A stretch of 64,000 nucleotides of DNA from Butyrivibrio fibrisolvens 16/4. GTDB taxonomy: Bacteria > Bacillota > Clostridia > Lachnospirales > Lachnospiraceae. Below the pieces are notes generated by a model, which did not search any database, had not been told where the DNA came from, and saw only the letters and a program-made list of their open reading frames with translations. This document shows positions 18,167 through 58,971 of the stretch, in pieces. Within the stretch, counting starts at the first letter, position 1, and every line of letters starts with the position of its first letter. The DNA lies in the NCBI GenBank assembly GCA_000209815.1, contig FP929036.1, positions 613,885 through 677,884 of the forward strand. Direction: 5' to 3'. Position numbers and translations under genes: made by a program.

Positions 18167-18239
<73 letters not shown>

Positions 18240-18245
18240 ACAGAG

Positions 18246-18319
18246 TTGCGGGAGATGGATTTGAACCACCGACCTCCGGGTTATGAGCCCGGCGAGCTTC
18301 CAGACTGCTCCATCCCGCG
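18246..18319 (-). tRNA. Initiator tRNA-fMet (CAT)
   Basis: Anticodon CAT. The first base C faces A at position 72 (unpaired) and the anticodon stem has three G-C pairs (GGG/CCC), both hallmarks of the initiator tRNA. Confidence 0.93.
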
Positions 18320-18332
18320 ATATTAAAAAAGA

Positions 18333-18414
18333 TGGGCGGTGGTGGATTCGAACCACCGAAGCAATTTGCAGCAGATTTACAGTCTGTCCCCTTTGGCCAC
18401 TCGGGAAACCGCCC
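18333..18414 (-). tRNA. tRNA-Tyr (GTA)
   Basis: 82-base class II tRNA with a long variable arm, acceptor GGGCGGT / ACCGCCC, anticodon GTA. Confidence 0.94.
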
Positions 18415-18439
18415 ATATTATTAACAATATTCAATTAAA

Positions 18440-18512
18440 TGGGACCTACAGGGCTCGAACCTGTGACCCCCTGCTTGTAAGGCAGATGCTCTCCCAGCTG
18501 AGCTAAGATCCC
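18440..18512 (-). tRNA. tRNA-Val (TAC), minus-strand copy
   Basis: 73 bases, acceptor GGGATCT / AGGTCCC, anticodon TAC. Identical to the plus-strand copy at 19285-19357; with the Asp gene it forms an inverted duplication. Confidence 0.95.
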
Positions 18513-18534
18513 ATAATAAATATAAAACTGGAAA

Positions 18535-18608
18535 CGACCCCAGAGGGACTTGAACCCTCGACCTCCGCCGTGACAGGGCGGCGCTCTAACCAACTGAGCC
18601 ATGAGGCC
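18535..18608 (-). tRNA. tRNA-Asp (GTC), minus-strand copy
   Basis: 74 bases, anticodon GTC. First gene of the minus-strand cluster and identical to the plus-strand copy at 19190-19263. Confidence 0.95.
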
Positions 18609-18634
18609 ATATTTAAGTAAATAGTAATCTATAA

Positions 18635-18661
18635 TCCTCGATAGCTCAATGGTAGAGCACT
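18635..18661 (+). pseudogene. 5' fragment of tRNA-Asn
   Basis: These 27 bases (acceptor 5' strand, D-arm and start of the anticodon stem) exactly repeat the start of the tRNA-Asn gene at 18709-18735. The sequence then diverges and no anticodon or T-arm follows. It is a partial duplication lying 74 bases upstream of the intact gene. Confidence 0.8.
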
Positions 18662-18708
18662 GCGGCGAGTTCCCTGTTTTACTGTTGGTTTGATGGAAAT
18701 ACTACTAA

Positions 18709-18780
18709 TCCTCGATAGCTCAATGGTAGAGCACTCGGCTGTTAACCGAGTTGTTGTAGGTTCGAGCCCTACTCGGGGAG
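18709..18780 (+). tRNA. tRNA-Asn (GTT)
   Basis: 72-base cloverleaf, acceptor TCCTCGA / TCGGGGA, anticodon GTT, first complete gene of the plus-strand cluster. Confidence 0.94.
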
Positions 18781-18862
18781 TTTATACAAGTTGATTATTT
18801 TTGATTTGTATGTTATTATTAGCAAGTCGCTGAAGCACAGGCGTTGTGAGTTCAGCCAGTTT

Positions 18863-18934
18863 GGCTCCGTGGTCAAGCGGTTAAGACATCGCCCTTTCAC
18901 GGCGGTAACACGGGTTCGATTCCCGTCGGAGTCA
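18863..18934 (+). tRNA. tRNA-Glu (TTC)
   Basis: 72 bases, acceptor GGCTCCG / CGGAGTC, anticodon TTC. Confidence 0.95.
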
Positions 18935-18958
18935 TTTGTTTTGTAAATTTATTAGTAA

Positions 18959-19031
18959 GCCGATGTGGCTCAATTGGCAGAGCAGCTGATTTGTAATCAG
19001 CAGGTTATCGGTTCGAGTCCGATCATCGGCT
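18959..19031 (+). tRNA. tRNA-Thr (TGT)
   Basis: 73 bases, acceptor GCCGATG / CATCGGC, anticodon TGT. A short T-run follows directly. Confidence 0.95.
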
Positions 19032-19096
19032 TTTTTCTATTAAATAGAAAGAGGCCAATTTTTTTTATAAAGGTCTTGCTTGTATATACACAATAT

Positions 19097-19170
19097 GGAC
19101 CTTTAGCTCAGTTGGTTAGAGCAACCGGCTCATAACCGGTCGGTCCAGGGTTCGAGTCCCTGAGGGTCCA
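19097..19170 (+). tRNA. tRNA-Met (CAT, elongator-type)
   Basis: 74 bases, acceptor GGACCTT / AGGGTCC fully paired, anticodon CAT. It lacks the initiator features, so it is elongator Met or possibly the lysidine-modified Ile tRNA; the sequence alone does not decide. Confidence 0.9.
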
Positions 19171-19189
19171 CTTTCTTATATTTTAATAT

Positions 19190-19263
19190 GGCCTCATGGC
19201 TCAGTTGGTTAGAGCGCCGCCCTGTCACGGCGGAGGTCGAGGGTTCAAGTCCCTCTGGGGTCG
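19190..19263 (+). tRNA. tRNA-Asp (GTC), plus-strand copy
   Basis: 74 bases, anticodon GTC, identical to the minus-strand copy at 18535-18608. Confidence 0.95.
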
Positions 19264-19284
19264 TTTCCAGTTCTTTATTATTAT

Positions 19285-19357
19285 GGGATCTTAGCTCAGC
19301 TGGGAGAGCATCTGCCTTACAAGCAGGGGGTCACAGGTTCGAGCCCTGTAGGTCCCA
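19285..19357 (+). tRNA. tRNA-Val (TAC), plus-strand copy
   Basis: 73 bases, anticodon TAC, identical to the minus-strand copy at 18440-18512. Confidence 0.95.
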
Positions 19358-19363
19358 TTTGAT

Positions 19364-19425
19364 GTAAATCGCAAGCGATTTACTAGCATACTTTTTTCTT
19401 TCATTTCATTCAGAAAAAAGCATGC
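19364..19425 (+). other. Two hairpins between tRNA-Val and tRNA-Leu
   Basis: A 9-bp perfect stem GTAAATCGC / GCGATTTAC (19364-19383) is followed by a second, 14-bp stem (19386-19399 with 19412-19425, one G-T pair). The T-rich tract after the first stem makes a weak terminator or a processing site plausible. Confidence 0.45.
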
Positions 19426-19429
19426 GTTT

Positions 19430-19513
19430 GCCGTAGTGGCGGAACTGGCAGACGCGCGGGACTTAAAATCCCGTGGTGGCGACATCGTACCGGTTCGATT
19501 CCGGTCTACGGCA
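19430..19513 (+). tRNA. tRNA-Leu (TAA)
   Basis: 84-base class II tRNA, acceptor GCCGTAG / CTACGGC, long variable arm, anticodon TAA. Confidence 0.94.
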
Positions 19514-19541
19514 TTACTCTTAGGAGTAAATTTAATAATGT

Positions 19542-19615
19542 GTGTGCGTAGCTCAGCTGGATAGAGCACTTGGCTACGGACCAAGGTGTCGGGGGTTCGA
19601 ATCCTCTCGCGCACG
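19542..19615 (+). tRNA. tRNA-Arg (ACG)
   Basis: 74 bases, acceptor GTGTGCG / CGCGCAC, anticodon ACG (normally edited to ICG). Confidence 0.94.
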
Positions 19616-36463: not shown

Positions 36464-37228
36464 ATGGGTGAACTACATCACATTGCCTTCGAGGATGAGG
36501 CTGACAATATTAAAGAGAAGGTGGAGAGCTACTGGACAAAACGTGCCCAGGGCTTTTTCGAGCTTCGTCACGATGAAATAGAAAGCAATAAGGCTGCTCG
36601 CTGGACTAAAGCATTAAACGAGCTTCTTCCAAAGAAGGAGTGCCTAAATATATTAGATGTTGGTTGTGGAACAGGGTATTTTGAGGTCCTACTTGGAAAG
36701 CTGGGACATAGAGTAACTGGCGTTGATCTGACAGAAGAGATGATTGTTAAAGCCAATGAAATGATTCAAATGTACGGATTAGATACAGAAAATATAAAAG
36801 CAATCATTGGAGATGCAGAAAAACTGGATTTTGATGACAATACATTTGATGCTGTTATTACCCGCAATCTTACCTGGACATTGCCACATCCAATCGAGGC
36901 CTATAAAGAATGGAACCGAGTACTAAAGAAGGGCGGTATTCTTATTAATTTTGATGCAGAATATGCTAAGGGAGCTCATAATCTGAAAAGCCCTGAAAAT
37001 TTAGCTCACAGTAAAATATCAGACAGCTTAAAGGATGAATGTCATGATATTTATCACATGCTTACCATTAGTACACTTGATAGACCAGAGTGGGACAAGG
37101 CTGTTTTATTACGAAACAATTACGAAAATATTACGGTAAATTTGGATTTTGGAAGCCACATTTTTATCGAACATGATGAATTTTACACACCTGAGAAAAT
37201 GTTTTGTTTAACTGCCTTTAAGCCTTGA
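36464..37228 (+). CDS. Class I SAM-dependent methyltransferase, paralogue 2
   Basis: A 254-residue paralogue of the preceding protein. Motif I is ILDVGCGTGYF (~residue 62), then VTGVDLTEEM; the shared block ITRNLTWTLP and the following EWNRVLKKGG match the first copy, so the pair arose by duplication and has since diverged. A small hairpin CTCCAC / GTGGAG sits between the two genes. AGGAAA precedes the ATG. The substrate is unknown. It ends the importer/methyltransferase unit; a 1-kb non-coding region follows. Confidence 0.82.
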   Translation: MGELHHIAFEDEADNIKEKVESYWTKRAQGFFELRHDEIESNKAARWTKALNELLPKKECLNILDVGCGTGYFEVLLGKLGHRVTGVDLTEEMIVKANEMIQMYGLDTENIKAIIGDAEKLDFDDNTFDAVITRNLTWTLPHPIEAYKEWNRVLKKGGILINFDAEYAKGAHNLKSPENLAHSKISDSLKDECHDIYHMLTISTLDRPEWDKAVLLRNNYENITVNLDFGSHIFIEHDEFYTPEKMFCLTAFKP

Positions 37229-37334
37229 TTATGCGGAATTGTAAACATTTATACACACCTGTGTATTAGGTTAGGATATATGAACTTAAAAACAAGAAAA
37301 ATACAATTTTGTGAAAAAAATATGAAAAAATATC

Positions 37335-37363
37335 TTGCGGAAACGTTTTTCACATGGTATAGT
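37335..37363 (+). promoter_or_regulatory. Promoter of a candidate small RNA
   Basis: TTGCGG (37335-37340), 17 bases, then TGG-TATAGT with extended -10. The spacer holds GAAACGTTTTTC, which resembles a LacI/CcpA-type half-palindrome. Confidence 0.6.
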
Positions 37364-37369
37364 ACTTAA

Positions 37370-37475
37370 CGTACTAGCGAAAAGCTAATACCAAATTTTT
37401 CATAACTCAGCGACCAAGGGCAACTTTGGTCGCACTCCCCGAACTTTCAGCCAGCGTTTCGACGCTGGCTTTTTA
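37370..37475 (+). ncRNA. Candidate small RNA of about 105 bases
   Basis: Between a strong promoter and an intrinsic terminator there is no open frame. The sequence can form GCGACCAA / TTTGGTCGC near 37411-37435 and ends in a 9-bp stem AGCCAGCGT / ACGCTGGCT with a TTCG loop, then TTTTT (about 37449-37474). I do not recognise an RNA family. It lies just left of the large palindrome. Confidence 0.5.
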
Positions 37476-37498
37476 ATTCTCACGCACATTTTCGGTGC

Positions 37499-38187
37499 CA
37501 CTATCCACACATCCACGAGTCTTATCAACAGGCCCTCTGCCCACCTAGTTATTTGACATTGCCGCCCCGCCAGCCCTGGCCCAGCCCCTGCCACTGCTTG
37601 GGAAACATCGCAAGAATATTATGTTTTCCATATATGCAAAGACTCGCATTCTTATTAGCAAGTGTCTTTTGTAAGCCTTTACAATTTTGAGAAATGTAGT
37701 CAATGGGCGGACAATATTTGAACTTAGTAGGATTTTCAAGTTTAATGAGCAACTTGTGTGAGTTTGAAATGAACTTAGAAAAATAAAGAGCAGGTTTTGT
37801 AATGTATAGGCAGCAGCCGCTAGGACGGCGGCTGCAGTGGTCACTTGAAACACGATGTTGAATGTGCCACGGTGACTATACATACAAAACCTGCTCTTTT
37901 AATTTTTCTTAGTGAATGGAGCAGGAACACAAGTGCTCATTGAACTGGAAAATCCTAATATAATTAACCTAGATTGTCCGCCCCTTGTTCTACATTTCTC
38001 AAAATAGTTCATTCTTCAAAAGACACTTGCGAATGCTCGCTTTTTGCATATTGGAAAACTATAATATTCGCGAAATCATTTCCTAAGCAGCGGCAGGGGC
38101 TGGGCCAGGGCTGGCGGGGCGGCAGGGGAAGGAGTGCAAGGTGGGCAGAGGGCCTTTTGCCCTAATGTTTAAAATGTGTGGATAGTG
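37499..38187. repeat. ~690-bp imperfect palindrome with GC-rich arms
   Basis: Two arms of about 300 bases face each other around a centre near 37843. Matching blocks: 37499-37512 with 38174-38187 (14 of 14), 37530-37546 with 38139-38155 (17 of 17), 37561-37592 with 38092-38123 (32 of 32, very GC-rich), and 37785-37809 with 37876-37899 (24 plus one gap). Weaker similarity joins the blocks. A further stem GCAGCCGC / GCGGCTGC (37813-37835) lies in the centre. Open frames inside are by-products of the repeat and lack ribosome sites. Nature unknown: inverted repeat copies, a fold-back element or a very long RNA hairpin. Confidence 0.85.
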
Positions 38188-38198
38188 ACGCCGGGGAC

Positions 38199-38253: not shown

Positions 38254-38925
38254 ATGGGTGAAGTTAAGGTAATTGAAATAGGAGAGAGTGTATTTGCTGA
38301 GAATGATGCAGCAGCTGAGGCTATTCGTCAGCAGATGAAAAAACAGGGTACATTTTTTGTTAATGTAATGTCAGGCCCTGGTTCAGGTAAGACTACTACA
38401 CTTTCAGCTATTATTAACAGGATGAAGGATAAATATAAGATTGGCGAGATGGATGTGGATATTGAGACTAGTATCGATGCCCAGCGTGTAGCTGATGCCA
38501 CTGGTGTTCAGTCTATCCAGATTCATAATATGGGCTTGTGCCATATTGATGCTGATATGACTAGCCGTGCTCTTATGGAGTATGATACAAATGATTTCGA
38601 TCTTCTTATATTAGAGAATATTGGTAATCTTGTTTGCCCTGCAGAGTTTGATGTGGGTGCAAATAAAAATCTTATGCTTTTGTCTGTCCCAGAGGGGGAC
38701 GACAAGCCTCTTAAGTATCCTCTTATGTTTGAGATCAGTGATGTTGTTCTTATTAATAAGATAGATACATTGGATTATTTTGATTTTAGTAAAGAAAAGG
38801 TTACAGAAAGAATTCTTAAGCTTAATCCTAATGCAAAGATTTTCTTTGTAAGTGGAAAGACAGGCGAGGGCTTAGATGATGTAGTTGCCTGGTTAGAGGA
38901 AGAAATTGCAAAAGCAAAGGCCTAG
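38254..38925 (+). CDS. hypB: Hydrogenase nickel incorporation GTPase HypB
   Basis: A 223-residue G3E-family GTPase. Walker A is GPGSGKTT (~residue 42), the family's Asp/Glu block DVDIETSIDAQR follows, IENIGNLVCPAEFDVG holds the metal-site Cys, and NKID near residue 168 gives guanine specificity. There is no His-rich N-terminal nickel-storage stretch. AAAGGAG lies 9 bases before the ATG. HypB, with HypA, inserts nickel into NiFe hydrogenase, but the gene stands alone here without hypA or hydrogenase genes in view. A nickel-type importer lies 2.5 kb upstream. Confidence 0.92.
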   Translation: MGEVKVIEIGESVFAENDAAAEAIRQQMKKQGTFFVNVMSGPGSGKTTTLSAIINRMKDKYKIGEMDVDIETSIDAQRVADATGVQSIQIHNMGLCHIDADMTSRALMEYDTNDFDLLILENIGNLVCPAEFDVGANKNLMLLSVPEGDDKPLKYPLMFEISDVVLINKIDTLDYFDFSKEKVTERILKLNPNAKIFFVSGKTGEGLDDVVAWLEEEIAKAKA

Positions 38926-58845: not shown

Positions 58846-58971
58846 CCACCTGGGCTGGCGCCGTTTGGCGTCAGTCCTTGTTTGCTATCGGCCCTAGACT
58901 ACAAAGGCAGGATGGGACGGGCGGCGGCAGAGGAAGAGGGGGCAAACAAGGATTGATTGAAAGACAGGTGG
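58846..58971 (+). repeat. Nested inverted repeats with GC-rich loop
   Basis: Outer CCACCTG / CAGGTGG (58846-58852, 58965-58971), inner TCCTTGTTTGC / GCAAACAAGGA (58875-58885, 58942-58952), and a local hairpin CTGGCGCC / GGCGTCAG. The loop contains GACGGGCGGCGGCAG, GC-rich in contrast to its surroundings and similar in composition to the 37-kb palindrome. Confidence 0.6.

What the first reader, a model, noticed from the sequence alone, without database searches (positions are those of the whole stretch)
37499..38187. A ~690-bp imperfect palindrome with GC-rich core arms, upstream of hypB
Four collinear blocks, the best 32 of 32 bases and nearly all G/C, face each other around 37843 in AT-rich DNA. 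Arms differ elsewhere, so this is old or under selection only at certain blocks. It is bounded by the terminator of a candidate small RNA on the left and the hypB promoter on the right. It carries no transposase. It may be two inverted copies of a repeat, a fold-back element, or template of a very long double-stranded RNA.
Basis: seen in the sequence. Interest (0 to 1): 0.72.

Follow-up and report, generated by a model that had tools for sequence, protein, structure and literature searches.

The report
Mobile DNA palindrome tipped by TwoAYGGAY
The long palindrome is one copy of a scattered, transposon-like DNA element of rumen bacteria whose tip is what databases list as an RNA family, but whose pattern of change looks like a DNA hairpin rather than an RNA.

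Summary
The palindrome is real: by its ends 37497-38189; RNA fold -410 against -202 kcal/mol in shuffles. It is one copy of a dispersed element: 25 of 29 genomes of the genus match, with up to 25 matches each. The 159-bp tip (37763-37921) matches Rfam TwoAYGGAY (RF01731): window 54.5 bits, and 19 of 19 further element loci pass the cut-off, own-genome copy 2 does not. Some copies keep terminal repeats GTTACYATTCACA; of 21 such, 6 have target duplications of 6-9 bp, so it is MITE-like. Relatives show sites without it. Arms differ between copies yet stay complementary. In the tip 37 of 51 pairs occur as more than one Watson-Crick pair, while G-U (7) is no commoner than A-C (6); in the arms wobble mismatches sit at composition-expected levels on both strands; tRNAs give GU 28, AC 0. 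The hairpin therefore looks maintained as DNA. One copy's arm holds an inverted 20-bp copy of the target's other flank, suggesting fold-back copying. No mobilising enzyme was established. 'Fold-back element' is right; long dsRNA is not supported.

The parts
37497..38189 (+). whole palindromic element, 693 bp, oriented by its core
37497..37509 (+). left terminal inverted repeat GCCACTATCCACA, diverged from GTTACYATTCACA
38177..38189 (+). right terminal inverted repeat TGTGGATAGTGAC, diverged from TGTGAATRGTAAC
37526..37605 (+). left outer arm: C-rich blocks 37526-37546 and 37560-37605, paired but differing between copies
38079..38159 (+). right outer arm: G-rich blocks 38079-38124 and 38139-38159
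37614..37762 (+). left inner arm with recurring unpaired bulges
37922..38069 (+). right inner arm
37763..37921 (+). conserved core (tip); Rfam RF01731 TwoAYGGAY match 37763-37924, 54.5 bits, gathering 43
37813..37835 (+). tip hairpin 1; the loop carries TAGGAC where 7 of 24 aligned copies have AYGGAY
37837..37870 (+). tip hairpin 2, followed by a CGG conserved in nearly all aligned copies
58875..58952 (-). site in the same window without the element, where relatives G027 and G028 carry a copy (L149, L151); it keeps one outer arm and a flanking inverted repeat TCCTTGTTTGC/GCAAACAAGGA, so more likely a deletion scar than a never-occupied site

Best explanation
The palindrome is a non-autonomous, MITE-like mobile element of about 600-700 bp. 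Shown: it is dispersed in intergenic DNA, more often at 3' ends of genes than between divergent genes. Shown: copies with recognisable ends carry GTTACYATTCACA...TGTGAATRGTAAC, and some have target duplications of 6-9 bp, most of them 8. Shown: almost all of it folds into one hairpin with a T-shaped tip (two small hairpins) that is the Rfam TwoAYGGAY motif. Inferred: the hairpin matters and is maintained as DNA (a cruciform or folded single strand), because paired positions change together but without a surplus of G-U intermediates and without strand bias. Inferred: the arms stay complementary, and at times grow outward, by fold-back copying of one arm and its flank onto the other during replication, plus exchange between copies; the unpaired tip and bulges are kept by selection, perhaps as the recognition structure of a trans-acting enzyme. 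The enzyme was not established. The window copy is an old one with diverged terminal repeats and no target duplication found.
For: Matches in 25 of 29 genomes of the genus. Terminal motif (up to 2 mismatches) on both arms within 60 nt of the same offset in 23 of 92 copies; of the 21 under stricter matching, 6 have a flanking direct repeat of at least 6 bp, shuffled mean 0.43, 0 of 5000 shuffles as high. Nine sites compared with and without it: L149/L151 against the window; L148/L214 (639 bp against 7 bp), L203/L216, L195/L215, L202 and L198/L217, WIN/L218; L157_13431/L287 (575 against 11 bp, 98% flanks), L154_3300/L288, L157_3467/L289. Rfam: 19 of 19 loci. Tip: 51 pairs, 177 cells with another Watson-Crick pair, GU 7, AC 6. 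Arms: 2176 mismatches, wobble on the + strand 13.8% (12.9% expected), on the - strand 18.9% (19.7% expected). Control: 16 distinct tRNAs, GU 28, AC 0. Arm growth: L157_3467 has a 20-bp inverted copy of the right flank in its left arm, absent from the 95-97% identical site without the element; 15 bp of a gene's 3' end is mirrored in L156/L122 (by eye). Context of 89 copies with both neighbours: 55 codirectional, 27 convergent, 7 divergent. Same tip, long arms and terminal motif in another genus, G295.
Against: 15 of 21 copies with recognisable ends show no target duplication of 6 bp or more, and 69 of 92 lack the motif on both arms at matching offsets. No autonomous partner was established: L322 (G028) does hold an IS4-type transposase between inverted copies of the motif 1.7 kb apart, but its sister L321 suggests the IS jumped into the motif, so this candidate is neither shown nor excluded. 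In 13 pairs of copies (11 orthologous) changes are mostly one-sided: 5-46 per pair against 0-8 compensated, so arm correction is seen in few places. In the alignments of the two arm groups GU exceeds AC (93/66 and 98/66), and with the loop-closing pair left in, the tip gives 21/6; both under a program that favours GU. 13 of 92 copies have short paired arms (under 150 columns). The inverted flank copy in L149/L151 may instead reflect a deletion in the window genome.
Confidence: 0.72

Rival explanations
1. The tip is a genuine structured RNA, a CsrA-sequestering small RNA as proposed for TwoAYGGAY, and the arms merely stabilise it.
For: The Rfam family is classed as RNA; PMC4333381 (passages) proposed CsrA binding for it; loop 1 carries GGA in all 24 aligned copies; CsrA is found in 28 of 29 genomes.
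Against: GU 7 against AC 6 in the tip and no wobble excess in the arms, whereas tRNAs give 28 against 0. The four genomes without an element match (G012, G014, G017, G021) have CsrA too. Copy number, target duplications and empty sites are those of a mobile element.
Confidence: 0.13
2. The arms are purely a by-product: replication template switching turns a quasi-palindrome into a better one, and no selection acts on the hairpin apart from the terminal repeats.
For: Template switching is proposed to create and maintain hairpins with compensatory changes (PMC8794818, abstract and passages). Inverted flank copies and the lack of wobble surplus fit it.
Against: Recurring asymmetric bulges and the unpaired tip are seen in different genera; copying alone should erase bulges.
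Confidence: 0.2
3. The element has been kept as a bidirectional transcription boundary between genes.
For: 27 convergent against 7 divergent placements; in 13 of 27 convergent copies the two stop codons are equally far (within 10 bp) from the core; some outer arms contain paired terminator-like hairpins (L203, L202, L198, by eye), and one copy stands where the relative has a terminator (L154_3300/L288, by eye).
Against: The window copy and L005 sit after intact terminator-like hairpins (by eye); 25 of 26 hypB loci compared show no such element upstream (one of them too short to tell). Equal distances also follow from insertion into very short spacers (7 and 8 bp in L214 and L216).
Confidence: 0.12
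4. A REP-type element mobilised by a Y1 (RAYT/IS200) transposase.
For: Palindromic, extragenic, dispersed, and a target for insertion sequences, as reported for REPs (PMC1525189, abstract).
Against: PF01797 is found in only 10 of 29 genomes and not in G001, G002 and G007, which have many copies; REPs are 20-40 bp (PMC3733652, abstract start in the listing).
Confidence: 0.03

Closest known systems
TwoAYGGAY RNA (Rfam RF01731)
   Same: The tip matches the full 168-position model over the cut-off in the window and in 19 of 19 further loci, with the two-hairpin layout; of 24 aligned copies 7 have strict AYGGAY in loop 1, 3 in loop 2, 2 (L122, L199) in both (read).
   Different: It is the tip of a 600-700 bp mobile palindrome, multi-copy, without RNA-type wobble surplus; the window copy lacks a strict AYGGAY in either loop; own-genome copy 2 is below the cut-off.
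MITEs (miniature inverted-repeat transposable elements; definition recalled)
   Same: Non-coding, short, terminal inverted repeats, target duplications in some copies, dispersed in intergenic DNA.
   Different: Palindromic along nearly its whole length with a conserved T-shaped tip; autonomous partner not established; outer arms unrelated between many copies.
Mitochondrial repetitive hairpin-forming and double-hairpin elements
   Same: Dispersed, potentially mobile hairpins in intergenic regions with scattered distribution (PMC2800124, passages).
   Different: Organelle elements, the two described there with arms of 15 and 18 bp; here 600-700 bp bacterial elements with terminal repeats and target duplications.
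REP elements
   Same: Extragenic palindromes that are targets for insertion sequences (PMC1525189, abstract).
   Different: Far longer; no link with Y1 transposases.

Membership tests
TwoAYGGAY (RF01731) | covariance model score at or above 43 bits | tested here: met
   window 54.5 bits; 19 of 19 chosen loci of the genus; 8 of 11 loci of other genera; own-genome copy 2 not
TwoAYGGAY (RF01731) | AYGGAY in both terminal loops | tested here: inconclusive
   window loops read TAGGAC and ACGATG, so not met there; 2 of 24 aligned copies have it in both loops
TwoAYGGAY (RF01731) | works as a transcribed RNA | not testable with these tools
   no transcript data; the wobble pattern speaks against it
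MITE | terminal inverted repeats | tested here: met
   23 of 92 copies on both arms; window copy diverged
MITE | target-site duplication | tested here: met
   6 of 21 copies, 0 of 5000 shuffles as high; none at the window copy
MITE | no transposase of its own, multi-copy | tested here: met
MITE | autonomous relative with the same ends | tested here: inconclusive
   L322 holds an IS4-type transposase between inverted motif copies but may be an IS inserted into the motif; the 1.26-kb motif pair of G004 has no open frame of 120 codons; one search's list was cut short and one search covered two genomes
REP/RAYT | Y1 transposase in host genomes | tested here: not met
   10 of 29 genomes, none in G001, G002, G007
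CsrA-sequestering sRNA | CsrA in the host | tested here: met
   28 of 29 genomes
CsrA-sequestering sRNA | strand-specific RNA structure | tested here: not met
   GU 7, AC 6 in the tip
integron attC site | integron integrase and cassette array | not tested
   considered only because attC sites are folded single-stranded DNA (recalled)

The most novel reading that the evidence does not exclude
TwoAYGGAY is not an RNA class but the folded-DNA recognition tip of a new kind of transposable palindrome that moves through, or is recognised as, a hairpin, and that lengthens its arms by copying the target's flank in inverted orientation, so that insertions come to carry arms of their own.
Probability: 0.27. 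Interest if true: 0.85.

Novelty: new variant of a known kind. Interest (0 to 1): 0.62.

Why it matters
Compensatory change is usually taken as strong evidence for a functional RNA. Here it is abundant but lacks a wobble surplus and strand bias, so an Rfam family may be DNA; counting G-U against A-C is a simple test that could be run over other candidate RNA families. The elements also offer many natural, closely related copies, with and without neighbours, for watching how very long palindromes arise, grow and survive in bacteria, where such palindromes are expected to be unstable (recalled).

Tried and rejected
Inverted target duplication at the window's own site (58875-58952): first read, then doubted because the site keeps an outer arm and a flanking inverted repeat, which a never-occupied site should lack; the claim now rests mainly on L157_3467.

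Autonomous partner: L321 and L322 carry an IS4-type transposase next to GTTACTATTCACAG. At L321 a direct repeat ATTCACAGT lies on both sides of the IS (by eye), as if the IS had jumped into the motif; at L322 the motif is inverted on both sides. Doubted as partner, not excluded. L323's 451-aa ORF is butyryl-CoA:acetate CoA-transferase, a chance neighbour. The 1.26-kb motif pair of G004 has no open frame of 120 codons.

Y1 transposase as mobiliser: rejected. Phage or plasmid origin: no match in phages or plasmids and no exact match to one core pattern in viral contigs. The Rfam family search over the own genome found nothing, although cmscan of the same locus does: a filter loss, so not used as evidence of absence.

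Comparisons that gave no clean site: L203 against G028 (L219, about 800 bp of other sequence between the flanks) and WIN against G028 (L223, right flank only); L161/L290 (one flank only) and L123/L291 (relative is filled).

RNase P as wobble control is weak: RNAalifold found only 19 pairs and gave a similar GU/AC ratio on the wrong strand, so the tRNA control is preferred.

Equal stop-codon distances were first read as palindrome growth up to coding sequence; insertion into 7-8 bp spacers explains them as well.

Papers: listings only; one search found none. Passages seen of PMC2864571 (with outline), PMC4333381, PMC8794818, PMC11661157 and PMC2800124; outline and abstract of PMC1525189. In these searches, and among the 7 papers that hold the word TwoAYGGAY (5 listed, passages of 3 seen), I saw no statement that it is mobile or DNA; the other papers were not opened.

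Full report
What is there. The palindrome of 37497-38189 is real and far beyond chance. It lies between a methyltransferase gene (36464-37228, Pfam Methyltransf_11) and hypB (38254-38925, CobW/HypB/UreG domain), after a terminator-like hairpin that relatives without the element share. The genome is a Pseudobutyrivibrio by its hypB relatives (96% identity to named Pseudobutyrivibrio).

It is a repeat. The own genome has one further copy (89%; two core places). Within the genus 25 of 29 genomes match, with 1 to 25 matches each; a copy can be counted on both strands, and the list of places was cut short. From the listed places I chose loci by hand, not at random, and analysed 92 copies in 83 sequences (82 loci and the window) from 23 genomes. 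In 79 of 92 the paired arms span at least 150 columns; 13 have shorter arms, one of them cut by a contig end. By similarity of the middle part 88 copies with enough flank fall into groups of 51 and 32 and six singletons or fewer than that in a group (89 entered), all sharing the same tip.

The tip. The 159-bp core is the Rfam family TwoAYGGAY: 54.5 bits in the window (gathering 43), 48-83 bits in 19 of 19 loci given to (chosen because they hold the element), and 8 of 11 loci of other genera (L298, L303 and L304 not). Own-genome copy 2 does not reach the cut-off. The name-giving loop motif is strict in loop 1 of 7, loop 2 of 3 and both loops of 2 of 24 aligned copies, and in neither loop of the window copy.

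It moves or has moved. The terminal motif TGTGAATAGT (up to 2 mismatches) occurs on both arms at matching offsets in 23 of 92 copies; outside control stretches of 400 bp on both sides of the 92 copies hold 55 single hits. Of 21 copies with stricter ends, six have flanking direct repeats of at least 6 bp: ACTATTAT, TCTTACTC, AAGAGCTGG, CAATAAATT, AAAAATCC, TTTAAA; shuffled pairing gives 0.43 on average and never six in 5000. Counted outside GTTAC...GTAAC most are 8 bp (my reading). Genome pairs show nine sites with and without the element; four further attempts gave no clean site. In G007, 17 motif pairs lie 604-626 bp apart in the list, of which not each was checked for a core; one 692-bp pair of G008 (L331) shows no core.

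DNA or RNA. In 24 diverse tips RNAalifold finds 52 pairs, 37 with changes on both sides. Leaving out the loop-closing pair, 51 pairs give 1008 common cells, 177 other Watson-Crick cells, 7 GU, 6 AC, 24 other. GU and AC are the same mismatch seen from the two strands; a transcribed RNA should favour GU, as the tRNAs do (28 against 0 in 16 distinct tRNAs; ARAGORN itself tolerates GU). Copies are related, so cells are not independent. Results the other way: in the two arm-group alignments GU exceeds AC 93 to 66 and 98 to 66, and the uncorrected tip count is 21 to 6, both under a program that favours GU.

How arms stay complementary. In 13 pairs of copies, 11 of them orthologous, compensated changes are 0 to 8 per pair and one-sided ones 5 to 46; L182/L184 has six compensated changes bunched within 12 bp near the core, more like exchange with another copy than point changes. 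L157_3467 against L289 shows the clearest arm growth: the site without the element reads CAAGGGGGATTAGGTGGATGGTGGC; the filled site has the element plus, in its left arm, GCCACCATCCACCTAATCCC, an inverted copy of the right flank. L156/L122 mirror 15 bp of a neighbouring gene's end (by eye). L149/L151 show a 22-bp case, but the window's counterpart may be a deletion scar. Template switching is a published way to make and maintain hairpins (PMC8794818, passages). It does not by itself explain the recurring bulges and the tip, hence the inferred selection on a DNA hairpin.

Where they sit. Of 89 copies with both neighbours held, 55 are codirectional, 27 convergent, 7 divergent, by simple ORF calls of at least 100 aa. 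Thirteen of 27 convergent copies have their core within 10 bp of equal distance from both stop codons.

Spread. A covariance model of the tip finds 17 of 396 genomes of the family, 14 of 307 genera, own genus included. Outside the genus G307, G295, G057 and G265 score 80-152 bits at their listed places, 7 each, which is the number scored per genome; the remaining ten genomes reach 34-62 bits and may be chance. Of the loci held from these four, L260, L261, L277, L278 and L286 have arms of 205-253 nt, L263, L276, L279 and L285 of 31-113, and L262 could not be measured. In G295 the ends read GCTGTGAACGGTAA/GCTGTGAATGGTAA (L261) and GGCTGTGAATGGGAA/GGCTGTGAATGGTAA (L286); L260 and L278 show no such end.

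Verdict. A MITE-like mobile palindrome carrying the TwoAYGGAY tip; known kinds combined in a way I saw no report of in the searches named under Tried and rejected. How it moves is unknown. The DNA-level reading is the main claim of interest.

Noticed in passing
L307-L310 (G000, G020, G027, G028): A second, about 192-bp palindromic element with the same ends GTTACTATTCACAG and two hairpins with variable stems and similar loops (four read); about 21 such motif pairs 190-195 bp apart in the rows listed.
   Followed up: partly
L194, L195, L196 (G028): A DDE insertion sequence (Pfam DDE_Tnp_1 at L195) with ends AATGTCATTTAGATA sits in the core hairpin of L195 and L196, with a repeated GGAAGGCGGC on both sides at L195; L194 has the same half core beside a related, rearranged transposase frame.
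   Followed up: partly
L034 and L035, just upstream of hypB: A different hairpin of about 90 bp (AACTAACAA...TTGTTAGTGTAACT) with variable stem and similar loop sits in the same gap (by eye); attC-like at a glance, not tested.
   Followed up: no
window 37297-37474: A stretch conserved at about 82-89% upstream of hypB in many Pseudobutyrivibrio whatever lies between; a candidate small RNA, no Rfam match up to E 1 there.
   Followed up: no
L303 and L304 (G041): Very long, nearly perfect palindromes (135-nt arms, 97% and 92% complementary), repeated at L304, with a ...TTTTACTTAGCG... segment like the core's; no TwoAYGGAY match.
   Followed up: partly
G002:C1 245-442 kb: Copies cluster: 6 of the 10 listed places of G002 lie within 200 kb.
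   Followed up: no
L331 (G008): Two exact end motifs 692 bp apart, facing inward, with no recognisable core between.
   Followed up: no
window 18167-19615: A dense cluster of 13 tRNA genes on both strands.
   Followed up: no
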